From IMG/VR virus record IMGVR_UViG_3300042876_000236, positions 1-45,894 of that record: a stretch of DNA of 45,894 nucleotides; one strand, given 5' to 3'. A program made the translations under genes and the position numbers. Positions 1 through 45,303 of this stretch are shown one piece after another. Under the pieces are notes generated by a model. It ran no database searches. It worked only from the letters and a program-made list of their open reading frames with translations, and was not told the DNA's origin. Position 1 is the stretch's first letter. Each line of letters starts with the position of its first letter. Source of the stretch: a virus.

Positions 1-47
1 CAGGGGCAGTCGCGGCAGCGGCAACCGTCGCCCCGGCCATCGTGATC
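1..47. repeat. Terminal direct repeat of the contig (matches 45848-45894)
   Basis: Bases 1-47 are identical to bases 45848-45894. Merging them keeps the repeat protein in frame (2394 nt, 798 codons), so the molecule or assembly graph is circular or circularly permuted. Because the match lies inside a tandem repeat, it may only be an assembler overlap, and the number of repeat units may be collapsed. Confidence 0.85.
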
Positions 48-368
48 GCGGCATCAGCCTTCGCAGGGGCAGTCGCGGCAGCGGCAACCGTCGCCCCGGC
101 CATCGTGATCGCGGCCGAGAGTGTCGCCCCGGTGCTCGTTGAAAGCGTGGCAACAACCGTCGCCCCGGCCATCGTGATCGCGGCATCGACCTTCGCAGGG
201 GCAGTCGCGGCAGCGACAACCGTCGCCCCGGCCATCGTGATCGCGGCATCGACCTTCGCAGGGGCAGTCGCGGCAGCGGCAACCGTCGCCCCGGCCATCG
301 TGATTGCAGCCGACGCCTTCGCAGGGGCAGTCGCGGCAGCGGCAACCGTCGCCCCGGCCATCGTGATC
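1..368. repeat. 63-bp tandem repeat array, left part
   Basis: Six copies of a 63-bp unit can be followed by the core accgtcgccccggccatc, which ends in GTGAT(C/T) at 47, 110, 179, 242, 305 and 368. Spacing is 63 bp except 69 bp between the second and third. The array is in frame inside the minus-strand repeat protein and encodes a 21-aa unit. It continues at the right end of the window (45739-45894). There are no unique spacers between copies, so it is not a CRISPR. Confidence 0.93.
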
Positions 369-2137
369 GCAGCCGACAGCGTTGCCCCGCCGCCGGCCGC
401 GGCCTTTGGAATTACGAGCTTGGTCGTATAGACCTTGCCCTTGACCGCTGGCGGCACCTCGCGCAAGCGAACCACCACGCCGCCCGCCGACACTGCTGCG
501 CTCGCTGTATAGGCCCAAGTCGTTGCTACGCTAGCCGTTCCCGACGTTACTGCATCAAACGTGTCAACAACATGCCGCAAGTCGTTGCCGGTAGTGACTG
601 CGGTCGTTGCTCGGTTCGTCCGGGCGCCGAAGGTAATGCCTGCCGCGGTCAAGGCTTGCGCGGACTGCGTCGCTGTATCGACTCGCTGGCCTACCACAAC
701 GGACGCGCAATCGCCCGGCGCCCATTCGATCGCCGCCGTCGTCATGCTGACGCCCGTGCCGCTCGTGCTGTCGTTCGCGCCCTGCGCAACCACGTCCCAA
801 GAATACCCGGCGTGCCCGAGCACCCATCGCGTCATTGTTCCGCGAGCGGTATTGCCGTTCGTGATGCTGACCGTTACGGAAGTCTCGCCACCGACGGCAA
901 CCTTACCGAATACAGTCGCGCGACGCGGCCCCGTATCAACGCCGAAAGTTCCGTCAGTGCTCGCGCCCGTTGCGAGCAACGTCCAGCCACTAGGCGTACT
1001 CGGGACTTCGCTGTTCGTCGCGCCACTGGATACCTCAATCGTCAGATAGTTGCCGGCGACAATACCCGTCGGCACTGGAACAACAACAGAAGTTGATCCG
1101 TTCGCCCCCGTGCCGATCGCGCCAAAACTGACCGATGGCGCCGGCACTGATGTTGCGGCGGCAATCTCACATTGAATATTGAGGTCGCCATAATTGCTAA
1201 TGCCGCTCGGCGTAAACGAATAGCTCGTCACGCCGATCGGCAGCGGATCGACTGTGACTGTTCCCCGAGTCGTGCCCGCGCCTTCGATCAAGGTCGCAAT
1301 TAGCTTTTTCTCAGGCGAGCCCGACGCTCGAAATGCGAGCGTTTGCGTGCCGGCTTCTGGCGTGCTCAGTGCCGCTAGGCCCACCTTGCAAGTGCTATCG
1401 GCTGACGTTTCGATCCATTCGCTATCCGTTTCGTCAGCGAGCGGCGCATACAGGTCCGCGCCCGTGCTCGGCGTCCATGCTCCGTCGGTCACGTCCGCGT
1501 TCGGGTAGGCGACTTGAGGGAACGACGCCGTCGCGGCCACGGTCGCCCCATCCATCGTAATCGAGGCCGACATAGTCGCCCCGCCCGCGCCGGAAGCTAC
1601 CGCATTGAAGTCGTCAAAGTAGCATGACGAATTCGACCCGACGCAATATATGCCGGCGAAATCTGCGGCAGTAACGCCCGTGGTTGCCGAAATGCGCTCT
1701 ACGCCATCAATTAGCAGTTTCGCCGTCGTTCCAGCGAGGCGCAATTCCAACGACCGGGCCGTCGTCGGCGCATCCCCGGCGTAAGTGCCCAACGAGCTTG
1801 CCGACCCATTGATAACTTCAGTCAAAACCCATTCTTGAAGTCCGCCATGCCAAAGCGCCGCAATATAGGTCGCCACACTGGCGGACATGCGACCGGCCGG
1901 GCCGGGGGCGTATGAGGTTGTCGCGTTAGCGGCGGAAGTCAGGAAAACGCTGTAATCGGCCGTACCCGGAGCGGCATTGTAGTAATACCAAGGGCCATTG
2001 TTGTACTGGTCGTAAGCGTGTCCGCTGCCGTCTAGGACAGCATTGCCAGTGCTACCCGGCGCTGGCGTCCAATTCGCATCATGCGCCTGCAGCGTCGTGC
2101 CGGCGGTTCCGTTAAACAGATCGGACGCAAATGCCAC
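1..2137 (-). CDS. Large repeat-containing virion protein, N-terminal part (continues at 45894-45591)
   Basis: The minus frame is open from a GTG at 2137, with GAGG seven bases upstream, to the window edge. Collapsing the 47-bp terminal repeat joins it in frame to the segment ending at 45591 and gives about 797 aa. Residues 1 to about 190 look like a concanavalin/LamG-type jelly roll (ends LLIDGVERI, FDDFNAV). Ser/Thr/Ala-rich beta modules follow, and from about residue 585 to 748 there are 21-residue repeats around AITMAGATVAA. It lies between head genes, so a capsid decoration or adhesion fibre is my inference; there is no enzymatic motif. A terminator-like hairpin stands 20 bp upstream. Because no ATG opens the frame, a standard gene caller may miss it or report only fragments. 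Certain: one long in-frame ORF. Uncertain: role and exact repeat number. Confidence 0.8.
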   Translation of the reverse strand, partial: MAFASDLFNGTAGTTLQAHDANWTPAPGSTGNAVLDGSGHAYDQYNNGPWYYYNAAPGTADYSVFLTSAANATTSYAPGPAGRMSASVATYIAALWHGGLQEWVLTEVINGSASSLGTYAGDAPTTARSLELRLAGTTAKLLIDGVERISATTGVTAADFAGIYCVGSNSSCYFDDFNAVASGAGGATMSASITMDGATVAATASFPQVAYPNADVTDGAWTPSTGADLYAPLADETDSEWIETSADSTCKVGLAALSTPEAGTQTLAFRASGSPEKKLIATLIEGAGTTRGTVTVDPLPIGVTSYSFTPSGISNYGDLNIQCEIAAATSVPAPSVSFGAIGTGANGSTSVVVPVPTGIVAGNYLTIEVSSGATNSEVPSTPSGWTLLATGASTDGTFGVDTGPRRATVFGKVAVGGETSVTVSITNGNTARGTMTRWVLGHAGYSWDVVAQGANDSTSGTGVSMTTAAIEWAPGDCASVVVGQRVDTATQSAQALTAAGITFGARTNRATTAVTTGNDLRHVVDTFDAVTSGTASVATTWAYTASAAVSAGGVVVRLREVPPAVKGKVYTTKLVIPKAAAGGGATLSAAITMAGATVAAAATAPAKASAAITMAGATVAAAATAPAKVDAAITMAGATVVAAATAPAKVDAAITMAGATVVATLSTSTGATLSAAITMAGATVAAAATAPAKADAAITMAGATVAAAATAP

Positions 2138-2910: not shown

Positions 2911-3693
2911 CTAGATTGGCAAGACGGCCCGACTCGTACAACGACAATTGATTTCCTCGCCGGGCTGGATATATTTGCCGGAAATCAGGCAACCGGCCGC
3001 TATCTTATACCGTTTTCCGTTTGCCGCAACATGATCCGGGCGAGGATTCTTGCCGGCATGCGAATGCATCCATATCGCTTCGGTGATCCCGAGCTCAAGC
3101 TGCCGGGTCCGATTGACGACCGCATTCGCTTTATTCGACTGATCCCGGGCGATCAGTTCGGCACGTTTCGCCGTTACCGGGTATATCTGCCGGAGCTCCG
3201 CGACCATTGTTTCGAGGTCGCGCCCGAGCGAATACGACCGCATGACGACGCCGTCGATTTGCCGCAGGTATTGCTCGGGAATCGACTTTATCAAATTGAC
3301 ATTTTCAGCAATCGACGCATTCAGCGCGTCACGCATCGCCGCGGTCATGTTGAAGTCGACCGCCCATCCGGCGTCTTTGAGTGCCTGACGAAACGCGCTG
3401 TCACTCGCCTTGAATGCGCCGCGCACGTATGCGTCGGCAATCTTCGGGGCGTACTCGTCGAATTTGGCAATCCATCGTTTCGCAAGGCCGTCGAGCGTCT
3501 TGCGCATGCTTTGCGACGGCGAGGCGTCTTGCGCGAGCATGCCGATTCTCGGGGGCGCCTTGCGATACGCTGCCCTGATCCAATACTCAATGCTGCCATG
3601 CATTTCCGCGATCAGATCAGCAAGCGCCCGCCGATATCGCGACTCAATGCCACGATTCGCATGCACGGGCTTGCAGAGCTTAGGCTTTGTCAC
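2911..3693 (-). CDS. Phage minor head protein, Mu gpF / SPP1 gp7-like
   Basis: This 260-aa protein has the C-terminal signature of the head morphogenesis family: RAELIARDQSNKANA, then WMHSHAGKNPRPDH and PGEEINCRC near the end. Family members are minor capsid proteins that act with the portal in procapsid assembly. The start is a GTG at 3693, overlapping the portal stop by 14 bp, which fits coupled translation and the usual portal-gpF order. Length is normal for the family. No fused toxin domain is visible here, unlike the neighbouring portal. Confidence 0.9.
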   Translation of the reverse strand: MTKPKLCKPVHANRGIESRYRRALADLIAEMHGSIEYWIRAAYRKAPPRIGMLAQDASPSQSMRKTLDGLAKRWIAKFDEYAPKIADAYVRGAFKASDSAFRQALKDAGWAVDFNMTAAMRDALNASIAENVNLIKSIPEQYLRQIDGVVMRSYSLGRDLETMVAELRQIYPVTAKRAELIARDQSNKANAVVNRTRQLELGITEAIWMHSHAGKNPRPDHVAANGKRYKIAAGCLISGKYIQPGEEINCRCTSRAVLPI

Positions 3694-6088
3694 GCTTCAC
3701 CATGTAGGCATCAGACTTGTCGTTATCGGGCATTACCTTTTCGAGCTTGTAGCCTTTATCGGCAAGCGCCGACTTTGCTTGCGCCATAAATTCCGGGTCG
3801 CTATGTGCATCGCCGAACAACACGCCGACGCCCTTGCCGTACTTCGTAACCGATATGCCGCCTTGATATTTCGCAATGTCCTTTTGACGCTCAGCGATCG
3901 GCAAATCGTATCGCAGGAATTTGCCGCCGAGCGCCTTCAAAGTCGACGTGACATTGCTTATGCGTTGCTTAATGCTCTCGGGCGGCTCGCTCGACTGCGC
4001 GGGCGGCTCGCTCGACTGCGCGGGCGGCTCGCTCGACTGCGCGGGCGGCTCGGCCCATTGTGAATATTGCCGCATCACTTCCGGCGAATACTCTTTGCCG
4101 GTATGAATTCCGGCGAACACTTCGGCAACAAATTCTTTCGGGCTTGTCATTGCGTAGCGGCTCACCTCGCCGGCAAGTTCCTTTTGCGCTGGCACGGGCC
4201 AATAGCCCGGCGCTTTCGTGTGCAGAGTATGCCCCACTTCATGCAATAGCACGCCCATTGGCGACGACGACGCCAAATGGCCCGACTCGGCGTTGCTCTT
4301 TGCCATGGCGGCCGGGTCTTTCCAAAACGGCGACGACTTGTTGATTAAAACGCCATTCGTCGGACTTCCGATCGCGGCAAATCTGCCGTCAGTCTTTCGC
4401 CCGGACGGATTTTCAGTCATGGCATTTATGCCGGCGTCATTTAGAATCCGCGCGGCAATTTCGGCATTAGCTTTCGCCGTTTTACCCCATGCTGGCGTCA
4501 TCGCGCCTATGTCGGCAAACTTTTTTACCACATGGGCCGCCCCCGCCGGGGCGTTACCTTTTGGGCCGCCGCCGCCCCCCGAGCCGAATTTGCCGTCAGG
4601 CGCTCGGGGGTGATCCCCTTCTTTCCAATCGCCGTCTTTCGCCGCGAATGGCGGCGCATTCGGGTCGTCGTTTGGGTCAGTCTCACCGAATCCCGGGGGC
4701 GTCGGCGGCACAATCTCGACGGAAGTGTCGAGCCCCAGATAGCCGCTTTTCGGATCGCGGGCGAGCCGTTCGCGTTCCTCTTGCGGGTCAATGACGCCGG
4801 CATTGATATACGCCGTCGCGGCCTGACTATCCTTGAGGCGAATATCGGCCTCTTGCGTAGCGTCAAGCTGATACAGCGGCACGAATTCAAAGCTGATATC
4901 CGGGTCGATTTCGCCAAATTCGGAAAGCTGCACGATACGCAAAACGGTTTCGATCAAGCTGCGATAGTGCGCCTCTTGCTGCGCGGCAACCCAATCGTAA
5001 AAGCTGCGAATTTCCCCCTCGCTTGAAGCATTCAAGCCGGTAGGGCTGACGCCAATCAAGATGATTGCGGGAATATGCGACACGCTGCACATTTGTTCCT
5101 GTGCCTGCGCCTGCAGTTCATGCAGTCCCGAGAGCGGCGTATTGATCTGCACCAATTCCTCGCGATCTTTGTCGAGCAGCATTAGCCCGCGATTGCTCCG
5201 CGTGGCCGTAAATAGCTGCGCTCGCGCAACGACCGCGGCGCCGTCATCGTCACCATTCAAAACCTCATCCATTGCCGTTGCGAGAGCGGTAATGCTGAAA
5301 TTGTTGATAAGGTCGGCCACGCTTTGCCGAGTGCGGAGCCAGTTATCGACGTAGGGCTCGGCAAGCTGCGAGAGCGACATGCCCGCGAAGTTAAATGCGG
5401 GCTTGAGGATATCCGGCAGCGGTCGCGTCACGACCGTCAGCAAACGCGACGCATGCACCTCTTTGCCGAGCATGAACCACTTTGCGGGGCGGTAGAAGTC
5501 AGGGGCGGTCGGGTCGATTGAGTCGTACCCGGAAGGCGTAGTCCACACCGGATCGACAGCCGTTATCCGCTTCAACGCCCCTTTGCGTATGGTGCGCTTG
5601 TCGAGGATAAGAGGCAATTCGCGATTTGGGTCGCCGACATCGACAAACATTTGCCCGCGGCCGAATAGCGCATCGTGCTCGGCAATCTGGCGAATGACGT
5701 TGCGCAAATCGAGTTCGACGAATTTGCGCTCGATTTTCTTAATTTTCTCCGACGTGTCGGTCGCGTCGTCTTGCTTGCTCGTCAGCTTGATCCATTCGCG
5801 AGTAAGCTCGGTCGAGAGCGCCGCAGCGAACGCCCGATACTCTGCGCGGGTTGCTAGTTGCGCAAGGTACGGGAAGCCCGGGAAACCGCCCCCGACGGCG
5901 CCGCTTGCTGCATAGGTATAGGTCGCACTGTCGGCAGCCAAAACGGGCGCGTCCACTCCGGCAGGCACTACGCCGGGCATTAGTGTCGGGGGTCGGATCG
6001 GGAAATCATAGACCTTTTTCCCGCTCGCCTTCGCCATTTCCCGATCGGCCGCTATTTGCAGACCGCGCTTGTCGCTAGTTTTAGCCAT
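3680..6088 (-). CDS. Portal protein (DUF1073/HI1409 type) fused to a zincin-like domain
   Basis: This 802-aa protein is much longer than the roughly 450-500 aa typical of this portal family. Residues 1 to about 480 fit a DUF1073 portal (FGRGQMFVDVGD, PAIILIGVSPTGLNASSEGE, DATQEADIRLKD). A Gly-rich linker follows (HPRAPDGKFGSGGGGG). Then comes a domain with HEVGH at 616-620 and KEFVAEVFAGIH with Glu652/Glu656, the pattern of a zinc metallopeptidase (gluzincin or lethal-factor-like). Three EPPAQSS repeats (about 681-705) and a C-terminal domain of about 100 aa end the protein. The start ATG at 6088 has GGAG upstream. Portal function is secure; the peptidase role is inferred from the motif. Confidence 0.9.
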   Translation of the reverse strand: MAKTSDKRGLQIAADREMAKASGKKVYDFPIRPPTLMPGVVPAGVDAPVLAADSATYTYAASGAVGGGFPGFPYLAQLATRAEYRAFAAALSTELTREWIKLTSKQDDATDTSEKIKKIERKFVELDLRNVIRQIAEHDALFGRGQMFVDVGDPNRELPLILDKRTIRKGALKRITAVDPVWTTPSGYDSIDPTAPDFYRPAKWFMLGKEVHASRLLTVVTRPLPDILKPAFNFAGMSLSQLAEPYVDNWLRTRQSVADLINNFSITALATAMDEVLNGDDDGAAVVARAQLFTATRSNRGLMLLDKDREELVQINTPLSGLHELQAQAQEQMCSVSHIPAIILIGVSPTGLNASSEGEIRSFYDWVAAQQEAHYRSLIETVLRIVQLSEFGEIDPDISFEFVPLYQLDATQEADIRLKDSQAATAYINAGVIDPQEERERLARDPKSGYLGLDTSVEIVPPTPPGFGETDPNDDPNAPPFAAKDGDWKEGDHPRAPDGKFGSGGGGGPKGNAPAGAAHVVKKFADIGAMTPAWGKTAKANAEIAARILNDAGINAMTENPSGRKTDGRFAAIGSPTNGVLINKSSPFWKDPAAMAKSNAESGHLASSSPMGVLLHEVGHTLHTKAPGYWPVPAQKELAGEVSRYAMTSPKEFVAEVFAGIHTGKEYSPEVMRQYSQWAEPPAQSSEPPAQSSEPPAQSSEPPESIKQRISNVTSTLKALGGKFLRYDLPIAERQKDIAKYQGGISVTKYGKGVGVLFGDAHSDPEFMAQAKSALADKGYKLEKVMPDNDKSDAYMVKRDKA
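3981..4043. repeat. Three perfect 21-bp tandem repeats in the portal gene
   Basis: Exact copies lie at 3981-4001, 4002-4022 and 4023-4043, with a partial fourth copy after them. On the minus strand they encode EPPAQSS three times, a flexible Pro/Ser linker between the HExxH domain and the C-terminal domain. The copies are identical at the DNA level, which implies recent expansion. Confidence 0.95.
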
Positions 6089-7548: not shown

Positions 7549-7851
7549 ATGGCAAACCAAATCGCGCAAACGATCCTGCAGCAACTCGGCGGCAATCGCT
7601 TCACCATCATGACCGGCGCAAAGAATCTTGTCGCCGGCCCCAACTATCTGCAATTCGACATCGGCCGCGGCGCGATCAACAAGGCTAACAAGGTGCGCGT
7701 CACGCTCGACACGAACGATACTTACCTCGTCGAGTTCTTCTATCTGCGCGGAGTCAATTGCAAGACCTGCCCGGGCGCCGCTCGCGGCATCTACGCCGAT
7801 CGCCTCGCGCCCTATTTCACCGAAGCAACCGGCATGGATACGCACCTCTAA
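7549..7851 (+). CDS. Hypothetical protein (100 aa)
   Basis: Unrecognised by function. ATG 7549 follows AGGAG of promoter P3. Sequence features are QTILQQLGGNRFTIMTGAKN, KANKVRVTLDTNDTYLVEF, and a CKTCPGAARGIYADRL loop near residues 68-85. The pattern is a small alpha/beta protein of a type often seen as an unannotated phage gene. It has no membrane segment. The next gene starts two bases after its stop. Confidence 0.78.
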   Translation: MANQIAQTILQQLGGNRFTIMTGAKNLVAGPNYLQFDIGRGAINKANKVRVTLDTNDTYLVEFFYLRGVNCKTCPGAARGIYADRLAPYFTEATGMDTHL

Positions 7852-7853
7852 TC

Positions 7854-8261
7854 ATGGATCGCGTAACTCGAATCGACGACGAGGCGAGCTATCGGCTGAT
7901 GTCGGCCGCGCTCCCTCTCCTGACCCCGGCAGCGCAAGAGCTCGTCAAGAGCGTTGCGGTATTCGTCACAGCCGCCCGACGTGGTCGCGCAAATTGGCGG
8001 GGGCGCCTCGTGCGCGTTCCGACGTTCGTATTTAACGACACGATCAACTTTGCCGGCCGCGGAACGGTCGCAGGGGGCGACGCCTTTGCAGCCTATTACC
8101 TCGCGCACGAGCTCGCGCACGTAGCGGCAAAGACCGGCACGCATAGCCCGCAATTTATGGCGGCCTTCAAAGAGCTATGCCCGCCCGAATTGCAATGGTA
8201 CGAAACGCTCTACAAACCGAGAGCGGCAGCCGCGGCCGGCATCGTTAAAAATAGTTGTTGA
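7854..8261 (+). CDS. Small HExxH putative metallopeptidase (135 aa)
   Basis: ATG 7854 lies two bases after the previous stop. The protein carries YYLAHELAHVAAKTG with His85, Glu86 and His89, then His97 in GTHSPQF, a pattern like SprT/WLM-type minigluzincins, where a HExxH and a nearby third ligand bind zinc. A DNA-associated protease or a phage accessory peptidase would fit, but the substrate is unknown. There is no signal peptide. The TGA stop (8259-8261) lies inside the -35 hexamer of promoter P4. It is the second HExxH protein in this genome besides the portal. Confidence 0.82.
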   Translation: MDRVTRIDDEASYRLMSAALPLLTPAAQELVKSVAVFVTAARRGRANWRGRLVRVPTFVFNDTINFAGRGTVAGGDAFAAYYLAHELAHVAAKTGTHSPQFMAAFKELCPPELQWYETLYKPRAAAAAGIVKNSC

Positions 8262-44034: not shown

Positions 44035-44733
44035 TTAGGCGTTGCGGAAACGCGAGGCCGCCGGGAAACGCTTGAAGGCGTCAGCGGAATCGTGGGCGAC
44101 GGCCGGAACAGCGGCGGCCTTCGCGGAAGCGGCGCGGAAAAGTGCGCGGAGAGCCGGGACGCCTTCGACGCCAGCGCGGTCGACCTTGAGGTGATCGAGA
44201 GCGAAGCCGTAGATTTCGGCGGCGGAATCCATCGCAACATCGCCGACGACGTTGCGCACGTCGCGGGCAGCTTCCATCGCTTCGCGCATTTCGGCACGGA
44301 GCTTGGTGCTCATGGCGTCCATTGCGGCGTTGACTTCGTCTTTCTTCATGCCCTTGTCCTCGTCGGGGTCAGCATCGACGGCAGCGGGTGCGGCCGGAAT
44401 CAATGCGCAAGCGGCCTCGATGGTAGCATCATCGACCTTGCCTGCCAACAGTTGCCGCAGTTTGTCGACGGGCGAAGCGTCGGCGACGGCGGTCGGCGAG
44501 GTGACGGGCTCGGGGTCGGCGCTGACATCGGTAAGCGCATCCATCAGGCTGCCGACTTGCGTCGGGTCGAGATTGGCGTCGAGCGCGAGCAGTTTGGCCG
44601 AAAGATCGGCCTTGTTGATCGTCTTGCGGTTCGCTTGACCTACCAGTGCGGGCAGTGCGGAATCCGCCGCCAATACCGGAGAGGCCGCGCAAAGTGCCGC
44701 AAAGAGGGCTTTGCCCAATTTGGTCATTTTCAT
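44035..44733 (-). CDS. Nested scaffold protein, possible internal start (232 aa)
   Basis: Met191 of the DUF2213 protein (ATG 44733) has AAGGA (44746-44742) eight bases upstream and marks the border between protease and scaffold. Translation there would yield the scaffold without the protease, as in lambda C/Nu3. The first residues (MKMTKLGKALFAALCAASPV) look a little like a signal peptide, but this is likely chance. In frame with, and within, the longer gene. Confidence 0.55.
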   Translation of the reverse strand: MKMTKLGKALFAALCAASPVLAADSALPALVGQANRKTINKADLSAKLLALDANLDPTQVGSLMDALTDVSADPEPVTSPTAVADASPVDKLRQLLAGKVDDATIEAACALIPAAPAAVDADPDEDKGMKKDEVNAAMDAMSTKLRAEMREAMEAARDVRNVVGDVAMDSAAEIYGFALDHLKVDRAGVEGVPALRALFRAASAKAAAVPAVAHDSADAFKRFPAASRFRNA

Positions 44734-45303
44734 GGCGGGAGTCCTTGGAAAAGGGTTGGCGTCGGCAACAAAAACGTCAGGTCCGGCGCGGCCGACTTCA
44801 ACTAGCGCCAGATGATTACCCCGTATATCAGTCATACGACCGTCATAGGGCTGGCCTTGATACTCGCCGGGCTCCATGACGGGCACATACCGATAGGAAC
44901 AGGACAATTCGCAAACTTGTTCGCTTTCAATCCCCGCAATCGCCGGGGCGTCCCATACGCAAATATCGGCATACAGGTACGGGTTGGAGAATTCCACACT
45001 CGACCCGATCGCGCCGACAATAAGCTGCTTCAATTCCGGGTCGTCGGCGATGCGCTCGACCGTGATCGGCACATGCTTTGACATGACCGGCAGCCGGGCG
45101 AAACTTTCGGCGCCCTTCGCCAATTCGTCAGGATCGCGAAGCAACTTGTACATGCGATCGGGGTCGAGCCCGAGCGCATCATAGCCGGGAATTTCGCGGC
45201 CGTAGTACGGGTTGACTGCAGCCTTACTAATGCGCGTGCGAGCGACATGCAGACGGCCGTCGGCGTCGATTGTTCGTGCGCTTTTGTCAAAGGCGTAACT
45301 CAT
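44035..45303 (-). CDS. Prohead protease (DUF2213) fused to scaffold (422 aa)
   Basis: Residues 1 to about 180 fit DUF2213: DGRLHVARTRISKAAVNPYY, YGREIPGYDALGLDPD, SFARLPVMSKHVPITVERIA (His candidate), EQVCELSCSYRYVPVMEPG (Ser candidate) and GNHLALVEVGRAG. From residue 191 the chain is a helical, acidic scaffold (PAAVDADPDEDKGMKKDE, TKLRAEMREAMEAARDVRNV). An internal ATG at 44733 could give scaffold alone. It matures the capsid by cleavage. Order protease-cement-capsid is standard. Confidence 0.92.
   Translation of the reverse strand: MSYAFDKSARTIDADGRLHVARTRISKAAVNPYYGREIPGYDALGLDPDRMYKLLRDPDELAKGAESFARLPVMSKHVPITVERIADDPELKQLIVGAIGSSVEFSNPYLYADICVWDAPAIAGIESEQVCELSCSYRYVPVMEPGEYQGQPYDGRMTDIRGNHLALVEVGRAGPDVFVADANPFPRTPAMKMTKLGKALFAALCAASPVLAADSALPALVGQANRKTINKADLSAKLLALDANLDPTQVGSLMDALTDVSADPEPVTSPTAVADASPVDKLRQLLAGKVDDATIEAACALIPAAPAAVDADPDEDKGMKKDEVNAAMDAMSTKLRAEMREAMEAARDVRNVVGDVAMDSAAEIYGFALDHLKVDRAGVEGVPALRALFRAASAKAAAVPAVAHDSADAFKRFPAASRFRNA

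What the first reader, a model, noticed from the sequence alone, without database searches (positions are those of the whole stretch)
3680..6088. Portal fused to a zincin-like HExxH domain and a further C-terminal domain
Seen: about 300 extra residues follow the DUF1073 portal, with HEVGH at 616-620 and KEFVAEVFAGIH (Glu652/656) 32-36 residues later. Known: HExxH plus a downstream Glu is the zinc site of gluzincin and lethal-factor-like peptidases; phage head proteins often carry fused effector domains. Inference: up to 12 copies of a metallopeptidase would be carried at the portal vertex, either for maturation or for delivery against a host target.
Basis: partly seen in the sequence, partly recalled or inferred. 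Interest (0 to 1): 0.78.

Follow-up and report, generated by a model that had tools for sequence, protein, structure and literature searches.

The report
Phage portal carrying a swappable protease
A phage's DNA-gateway (portal) protein carries at its tail end a zinc-protease-like domain that related phages lack or replace with other enzymes, so the portal seems to be a carrier for exchangeable effectors that may enter the host cell with the DNA.

Summary
Minus-strand 3680-6088 encodes an 802-aa portal (PF06381) with a C-terminal zincin: HEVGH 616-620, Tyr645, Glu652, Glu656. An AlphaFold2 model of the domain (pLDDT 83.7, pTM 0.82) is nearest to anthrax lethal factor's catalytic domain and Pro-Pro endopeptidases (M34 type), though weakly (best Z 5.9). 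HExxH and both glutamates are invariant in seven aligned domains, including a second portal-junction-zincin fusion (L162) whose portal is only about 34-37% identical.

The zincin is one of several exchangeable cargoes. Of 75 complete portals examined (not dereplicated), 57 have no cargo; 18 carry tails, among them topoisomerase IB, ADP-ribosyltransferase, EndoU, CdiA_C and histidine phosphatase. A conserved junction, [FW]xExDHPRxxxGKF plus glycines, often joins head protein to cargo. No small ORF lies between portal and MuF genes, which overlap, so no immunity gene is evident there.

Best reading: a virion-carried effector protease, delivered with DNA against a host protein. Maturation is unlikely: most relatives lack the domain and the phage encodes a head maturation protease. 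Portal fusions to other effectors are published; no statement of portal plus zincin was found in the searches made. Activity, release, delivery and target are undemonstrated.

The parts
3680..6088 (-). Portal-zincin fusion gene, 802 aa
   Evidence: single open frame, ATG at 6088
4814..5869 (-). Portal domain PF06381, residues 74-425
   Evidence: Pfam E 2.4e-79; phrog_146 portal protein E 1.6e-108
4565..4627 (-). Junction motif WKEGDHPRAPDGKF plus glycine run, residues 488-508
   Evidence: motif found in frame; a looser form is in 12 of 18 tailed portals and 0 of 57 untailed ones; wider conservation
4043..4537 (-). Zincin domain, residues 518-682
   Evidence: AlphaFold2 model, VIA-align to lethal factor and PPEPs, homologues
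4229..4243 (-). HEVGH, residues 616-620
   Evidence: H, E and H invariant in 7 aligned domains
4121..4156 (-). Second active-site helix YAMTSPKEFVAE, residues 645-656: Tyr645, likely zinc ligand Glu652, conserved Glu656
   Evidence: helix in the model
3974..4054 (-). Pro-rich repeat linker, EPPAQSS units (residues 679-705)
   Evidence: 21-bp tandem repeat, 3.5 copies, 100% matches, 3979-4052; residues
3680..3988 (-). Small C-terminal domain, residues about 701-802, with stop codon; unassigned alpha+beta fold
   Evidence: model of residues 480-802 and VIA-align; absent from L162
2911..3693 (-). Downstream MuF gene (260 aa, GTG start), overlapping the portal gene by 14 bases
   Evidence: PF04233 E 4.5e-11, phrog_324 E 2.8e-83
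44035..45303 (-). Head maturation protease gene; the phage's own maturation protease and a candidate releasing enzyme (inference)
   Evidence: phrog_2229 E 3.2e-109

Best explanation
The gene encodes a structural portal with an accessory cargo: a metallopeptidase domain with the fold and residue layout of lethal factor and the Pro-Pro endopeptidases (M34 type), joined through a conserved [FW]xExDHPRxxxGKF-Gly junction. The cargo is not needed for portal function in general and is exchanged between phages for other effectors. Most likely it is built into the procapsid with the portal ring, lies inside the head, is freed or exposed at or before DNA ejection, enters the host with the DNA and cleaves a host protein (a defence or takeover target). 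Shown by sequence: the fusion, motif conservation, cargo exchange. Modelled: the zincin fold. Inferred: activity, place in the head, release, delivery, target.
For: Portal PF06381 74-425. Zincin model pLDDT 83.7, pTM 0.82; 35 of the 40 VIA-align rows, ranks 1-34 and 36, are lethal factor or PPEP, Z 5.9 down to 3.3, while the non-peptidase rows are at 2.4 or less. H616, E617, H620, E652, E656 invariant in 7 aligned domains. Second independent portal-junction-zincin fusion, L162: profile A2 E 5e-30, 38.8% identity over 196 columns of the C-terminal part, E 5e-32, MuF gene next to it 44% identical. Relatives of the cargo on other carriers: L083 on a third gene after portal and MuF-like genes, L082 beside a DUF2213 head-protease ORF, though the L083 and window portals share only a 112-residue match at 28%. 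Other cargoes in the same place: topoisomerase IB, ART, histidine phosphatase, GNAT, EndoU and CdiA_C, ART in cultured phage Orisa03. 57 of 75 complete relatives have no tail. Print: SPP1 gp7 (MuF) is brought into the procapsid by the portal (PMC6316719, passages); in P22 the portal C-terminal domains putatively extend inwards (PMC4992974, abstract in listing).
Against: No activity, release or delivery shown. Structural Z values are below 8 and Foldseek alone gives E 0.08 at best. A portal stays in the virion, so delivery needs a release step that is not known. Toxin-bearing MuF proteins were reported only in temperate phages (PMC5576092, passages), while no integrase profile matches here. L173, otherwise similar, lacks the tyrosine.
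Confidence: 0.6

Rival explanations
1. Self-processing protease: the zincin cleaves its own polypeptide, for example at Pro-Pro bonds of the EPPAQSS linker, to free itself or the last domain inside the head or at ejection.
For: PPEPs, which cut Pro-Pro bonds (recalled), are among the nearest folds and four EPP units follow the zincin directly. Autoprocessing is the role proposed for zincin domains of P1 DdrB and N4 vRNAP (PMC5512222, passages).
Against: The junction is shared with cargoes that are not proteases, so release cannot depend on the zincin in general. L162 has the zincin as its last domain with no such linker. Pro-rich linkers are common.
Confidence: 0.15
2. Bacterial weapon of polymorphic-toxin type, with an immunity gene, used by lysogens against competitors.
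For: Relatives L075 and L078 carry EndoU and CdiA_C tails, near-identical portal copies with different tails, an orphan portal fragment and small ORFs after three tails. Lethal-factor-like metallopeptidases occur as toxin domains of polymorphic toxins (PMC3482391, passages).
Against: In the window no small ORF lies between portal and MuF genes, which overlap by 14 bases; no tyrosine or serine integrase profile matches, though the record may be incomplete.
Confidence: 0.1
3. The zincin domain is inactive and serves as a structural or packaging element of the portal.
For: No activity data; parts outside the active site vary widely between homologues.
Against: All HExxH catalytic residues and both glutamates are invariant in 7 aligned domains; 57 of 75 portals do without any tail.
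Confidence: 0.08
4. Head-maturation protease: the zincin trims head proteins during assembly.
For: It sits on a head protein; head-linked zincins have been proposed as maturation enzymes in jumbo phages (PMC7824862, passages).
Against: The phage has its own head maturation protease gene and most close relatives have no such domain.
Confidence: 0.05

Closest known systems
MuF polymorphic toxins of temperate phages (Jamet 2017, PMC5576092, passages read)
   Same: Head protein with exchangeable C-terminal effectors; 20% of 191 MuF toxins carry a metallopeptidase domain, others ART or RelA-like; proposed delivery with the DNA
   Different: Trunk here is the portal, with a short MuF as the next gene; no small ORF follows directly; no integrase profile matched
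Polyvalent proteins with zincin-like MPTase (Iyer 2017, PMC5512222, passages read)
   Same: Zincin is their commonest domain; portal fusions to PBECR, 2H and InPase are mentioned
   Different: No portal-zincin fusion stated in the passages seen; the junction motif is not mentioned there
Portal-fused Nudix, 2H and ART domains (PMC9503650, passages read)
   Same: Portals as carriers of enzymes thought to be packaged and injected
   Different: Other enzymes; no zincin stated in the passages seen
Lethal-factor-like (ALF) metallopeptidase toxin domains (Zhang 2012, PMC3482391, passages read)
   Same: Same broad fold used as a toxin domain in polymorphic and PVC-delivered toxins
   Different: Delivery there is listed as PVC and T2SS, not portals
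Anthrax lethal factor catalytic domain and Pro-Pro endopeptidases (M34; family name recalled)
   Same: Nearest solved folds of the zincin model
   Different: Weak match (Z 5.9 at best), 12-20% identity, no sequence-profile match in Pfam
BFVD entries 'Lethal factor' (Siphoviridae sp. ctxdc10) and 'Minor capsid protein' (ctLNL10)
   Same: Top viral structure matches of the 323-residue model, probability 1.00
   Different: E 0.0026-0.0029 only; the names are database annotations; the carriers are not named portals

Membership tests
PF06381 phage portal | match over the curated score across the profile | tested here: met
   267.1 bits against cut-off 33.8, profile positions 3-356 of 357
zincin metallopeptidase | HExxH with a conserved downstream glutamate | tested here: met
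   invariant in 7 aligned domains
zincin metallopeptidase | zincin core fold | tested here: met
   in a predicted model only: HExxH helix 95-107 and Glu helix 135-147 in the model; zinc peptidases fill the top of the VIA-align list
zincin metallopeptidase | zinc binding and proteolysis | not testable with these tools
   needs purified protein
M34 (lethal factor, PPEP) | fold significantly closest to M34 | tested here: inconclusive
   M34 entries rank first but Z is at most 5.9 and Foldseek E 0.08
M34 (lethal factor, PPEP) | sequence-profile match (Pfam ATLF) | tested here: not met
   no ATLF match for the domain at E up to 10
MuF polymorphic toxin | N-terminal MuF domain as trunk | tested here: not met
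   trunk is PF06381; MuF is a separate gene
MuF polymorphic toxin | small putative immunity ORF directly downstream | tested here: not met
   the MuF gene overlaps the portal stop by 14 bases
MuF polymorphic toxin | carried by a temperate phage | tested here: inconclusive
   no PF00589 or PF00239 match, but the record may be incomplete
polyvalent protein (Iyer 2017) | several unrelated effector domains in one virion- or transfer-associated protein | tested here: inconclusive
   one recognisable effector plus an unassigned ~100-residue domain
polyvalent protein (Iyer 2017) | belonging to one of the 12 published MPTase clades | not tested

The most novel reading that the evidence does not exclude
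Portals (and other head proteins) are a general, modular virion delivery platform: the conserved [FW]xExDHPRxxxGKF-Gly junction is a processing or packaging signal that lets phages plug many different effectors into the head, at about 12 copies per virion on portals, and the window's cargo is an M34-like protease delivered against a host target. The junction would be a shared mark of injected phage effectors, for which no name was found here.
Probability: 0.3. Interest if true: 0.8.

Novelty: new variant of a known kind. Interest (0 to 1): 0.56.

Why it matters
MuF proteins are the best-described carriers of head-packaged toxins; in the papers seen here portals are mentioned as carriers only briefly. 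If portals often carry exchangeable effectors behind a recognisable junction, effectors can be found by searching for the junction, and the question of how phages deliver proteins with their DNA becomes testable in cultured phages such as Pseudomonas phage Orisa03 (portal-ART). An M34-like protease delivered in about a dozen copies would be a new candidate counter-defence or takeover protease.

Tried and rejected
Direct searches with the C-terminal region found little: viral contigs (9 pattern matches, none confirmed), phage records (none at E 0.01), PDB sequences (one match at E 0.57; none, last domain only: best a designed protein at E 5e-5, dismissed), phage records with the last domain (E 5 or worse), PADLOC (none). 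The L083 zincin gave no phage record and one weak plasmid match in Streptomyces, E 0.002, not followed. Profile A2 gave the same two viral contigs again and one bacterial locus, L087. Scanning for a motif of the second helix gave only contigs already known.

Last domain (701-802): in the model of residues 480-802 it aligned with phage neck and tail-terminator proteins (NF5 neck Z 6.5) but equally well with type II secretion proteins (Z 6.4) and other common alpha+beta folds. I do not assign it. Foldseek's top PDB hits of that larger model (histidine kinases, TM-score about 0.14) were dismissed as meaningless.

L053's tail has HELAH and similar downstream residues, but profile A2, built without it, did not list it at E up to 1: it counts as motif-like only. 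It is a row of A4, A5 and A6 all the same, so it also entered both structure predictions. L084, with a large insertion, was left out of A4-A6. The portals L170 and L139 carry other HExxH stretches, not alike after the motif by eye; not pursued.

Considered and rejected: an assembly artefact or frame error (one open frame, and the independent fusion L162).

Limits of the junction data: the search fixed the letters D, H, P, R, G, K, F, so only the other positions count as evidence; the count in tailed and untailed portals used a looser pattern (H[PK]R, 2-8 residues, G[KRQ]F), and untailed portals end within 60 residues of the portal, so its absence there is partly trivial. Counts are not dereplicated: five of the 18 tailed portals are one group (L007, L008, L009, L011, L012) with identical tails. 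Four of 18 tailed portals have neither this pattern nor the GMGGKF pattern.
Full report
Observation. The feature at 3680-6088 is on the minus strand: an 802-residue protein without internal stop. PF06381 covers residues 74-425 (E 2.4e-79). HEVGH lies at 616-620 as the only HExxH; Tyr645, Glu652 and Glu656 follow. HExxH alone is a weak signal (1079 of 100000 shuffles of the tail; 82 of 100000 with a downstream Tyr-x6-Glu), so homologues and structure had to decide.

Homologues of the cargo. An alignment of the window and L053 domains (A1) led to L082 and L083, 59% and 58% identical, and a distant L084; a genome scan led to L087. A profile of window, L082 and L083 (A2), run over ORFs of at least 60 aa from 211 loci, found L162 at E 5e-30, L087 at 4.5e-12, L173 at 4e-8 and L084 at 1e-4. 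In the seven-row alignment A6 the invariant residues are H616, E617, H620, A639, A646, E652, E656 and V671; Tyr645 is kept in six (L173 has Arg). L053 is a row of A6, but A2 did not find it, so its kinship rests on motif likeness.

Fold. AlphaFold2 with five sequences gave pLDDT 83.7 and pTM 0.82 for residues 516-689. VIA-align listed 40 entries: ranks 1-34 and 36 are anthrax lethal factor or Pro-Pro endopeptidase structures (1j7n: Z 5.9, 130 residues, rmsd 4.7; PPEP-3 9g3t: Z 5.0, 84 residues, rmsd 3.5), rank 35 is another putative zinc peptidase (Z 3.3) and the last four rows are at Z 2.4 or less. These Z values are modest, and only chains that Foldseek ranked were compared. Foldseek itself puts lethal factor first, at E 0.08. 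In BFVD the larger model's best matches are a phage protein named 'Lethal factor' and a 632-residue 'Minor capsid protein' (E 0.0026 and 0.0029, probability 1.00). I conclude: zincin fold likely, M34-like arrangement, membership of M34 not proven. That Tyr-x6-Glu is also the spacing in lethal factor and PPEP-1 is recalled, not from a call.

A second portal-zincin fusion. L162 (38.8 kb contig) has a PF06381 portal (E 3.3e-68) 34-37% identical to the window's, the junction DHPREEDGKF, then the zincin with HESGH as its last domain; from junction to zincin end it is 38.8% identical to the window over 196 columns. A MuF gene, 44% identical to the window's, comes next. The L162 portal also holds an inserted Hint-like segment (sub-threshold PF13403). 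The window's last ~100 residues are absent there. In L083/L086 the zincin instead ends a 748-residue protein encoded after a portal and a MuF-like gene, while the two portals share only a 112-residue match at 28%. In L082/L085 it lies beside a long ORF with a DUF2213 head-protease domain, in another frame. The cargo has moved between carriers.

Exchangeable cargo. In the 80 viral loci found with the whole protein, 75 portal ORFs are complete; 57 end within 60 residues of position 450 and 18 have longer tails, in 9 similarity groups, none matching the window's tail at E 1e-3 (near-identical contigs not removed). Pfam names topoisomerase IB (L011, 6.5e-19), ADP-ribosyltransferase (L047 1.9e-19, L050 1.8e-12), histidine phosphatase (L076, 7.9e-29), GNAT (L053, PF00583 1.5e-4) and a sub-threshold RelA_SpoT (L041, 0.089); EndoU (L075, 3.9e-19) and CdiA_C (L078, 3.4e-7). 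Some tails remain unnamed (L019, L033, L046). L075 and L078, short contigs from one sample, hold portal copies 84-94% identical in DNA; identity stops at the end of the portal or just after the junction, unrelated tails follow, and there is an orphan portal fragment with another tail; small frames of 96, 140 and 90 aa follow three tails. This resembles polymorphic-toxin cassettes. In the cultured Pseudomonas phage Orisa03 the 703-residue portal carries the junction and an ART (5.3e-19); ART relatives in other phage records lie mostly on features named minor capsid or head morphogenesis proteins.

The junction. The pattern H[PK]R-(2-8)-G[KRQ]F is in 12 of 18 tailed and 0 of 57 untailed portals; two more tailed ones have GMGGKF, four have neither. 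Over 106 distinct copies, positions not fixed by the search are conserved too: F or W four residues before D (97%), E two before (93%), and a glycine-rich run after. Of 90 scanned of 101 such ORFs, 18 match PF06381, 2 Portal_Mu, 1 Phage_portal_2, 1 Phage_portal, 8 DUF2213 and 1 MuF; effectors include NUDIX (15), ADPrib_exo_Tox (12), Topoisom_I (11), Zeta_toxin (5) and PBECR3 (3). These loci were chosen by the motif, so the numbers are not frequencies in phages.

Genomic setting. The window is a contractile-tailed phage: terminase, head maturation protease, major head protein, sheath, baseplate wedge, DNA polymerase and primase genes. No PF00589 or PF00239 integrase match; the record may be incomplete. 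The MuF ORF overlaps the portal stop by 14 bases, so no small ORF lies between.

Mechanism. Best reading (0.6): accessory effector. In P22 the portal's C-terminal domains putatively extend inwards (PMC4992974, abstract in listing), and SPP1 gp7, a MuF protein, is brought into the procapsid by the portal and supports initiation of infection (PMC6316719, passages). A portal tail should thus be inside the head. How it leaves is open: the junction is shared by cargoes that are not proteases, so a common releasing activity (for instance the head maturation protease) is more plausible than self-cleavage. Release, delivery and target are inference.

Known or new. In print: portal fusions to PBECR, 2H and InPase (PMC5512222, passages) and to Nudix, 2H and ART (PMC9503650, passages); MuF fusions to metallopeptidases (PMC5576092, passages); lethal-factor-like toxin domains in other secretion systems (PMC3482391, passages). 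I found no statement of portal plus zincin in the keyword searches and the passages read. The junction cannot be searched by keyword; only one paper was checked for its letters. Most subscription papers are not held. Hence: new variant of a known kind.

Noticed in passing
window 7758-8261 (+): Small ORF with HELAH and a weak YgjP-like metallopeptidase match (E 0.0096, below cut-off); a second zincin-like candidate in this phage, on the other strand.
   Followed up: partly
L162:5080-8400 (-): Portal interrupted by an inserted Hint-like segment of roughly 300 residues, apparently an intein, at a conserved portal site.
   Followed up: no
L075:2-5441 and L078:748-5780: Tandem or orphan portal copies with different toxin-like tails (EndoU, CdiA_C, unnamed) and small following ORFs, in two contigs of one sample; an ORF with a C39-type peptidase match lies between copies in L078.
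   Followed up: partly
L041:8766-11009 (+) and L046:8103-11009 (+): The same junction in other proteins: after NUDIX and DUF2213 domains in L041, and before an ART-ending protein in L046.
   Followed up: partly
L019:4866-8189 (+), L047:1386-3779 (+), L083:3207-5450 (+): A second recurring linker, ending in [AG]GMGGKF, precedes tails in L019 and L047 and is in the N-terminal part of the zincin protein of L083.
   Followed up: no
L011:1533-3944 (+): Portal fused to a topoisomerase IB domain; five contigs share this tail, and 11 of 90 junction ORFs match Topoisom_I.
   Followed up: partly
window 42-518: Highly repetitive coding sequence near the window start, open on both strands.
   Followed up: no
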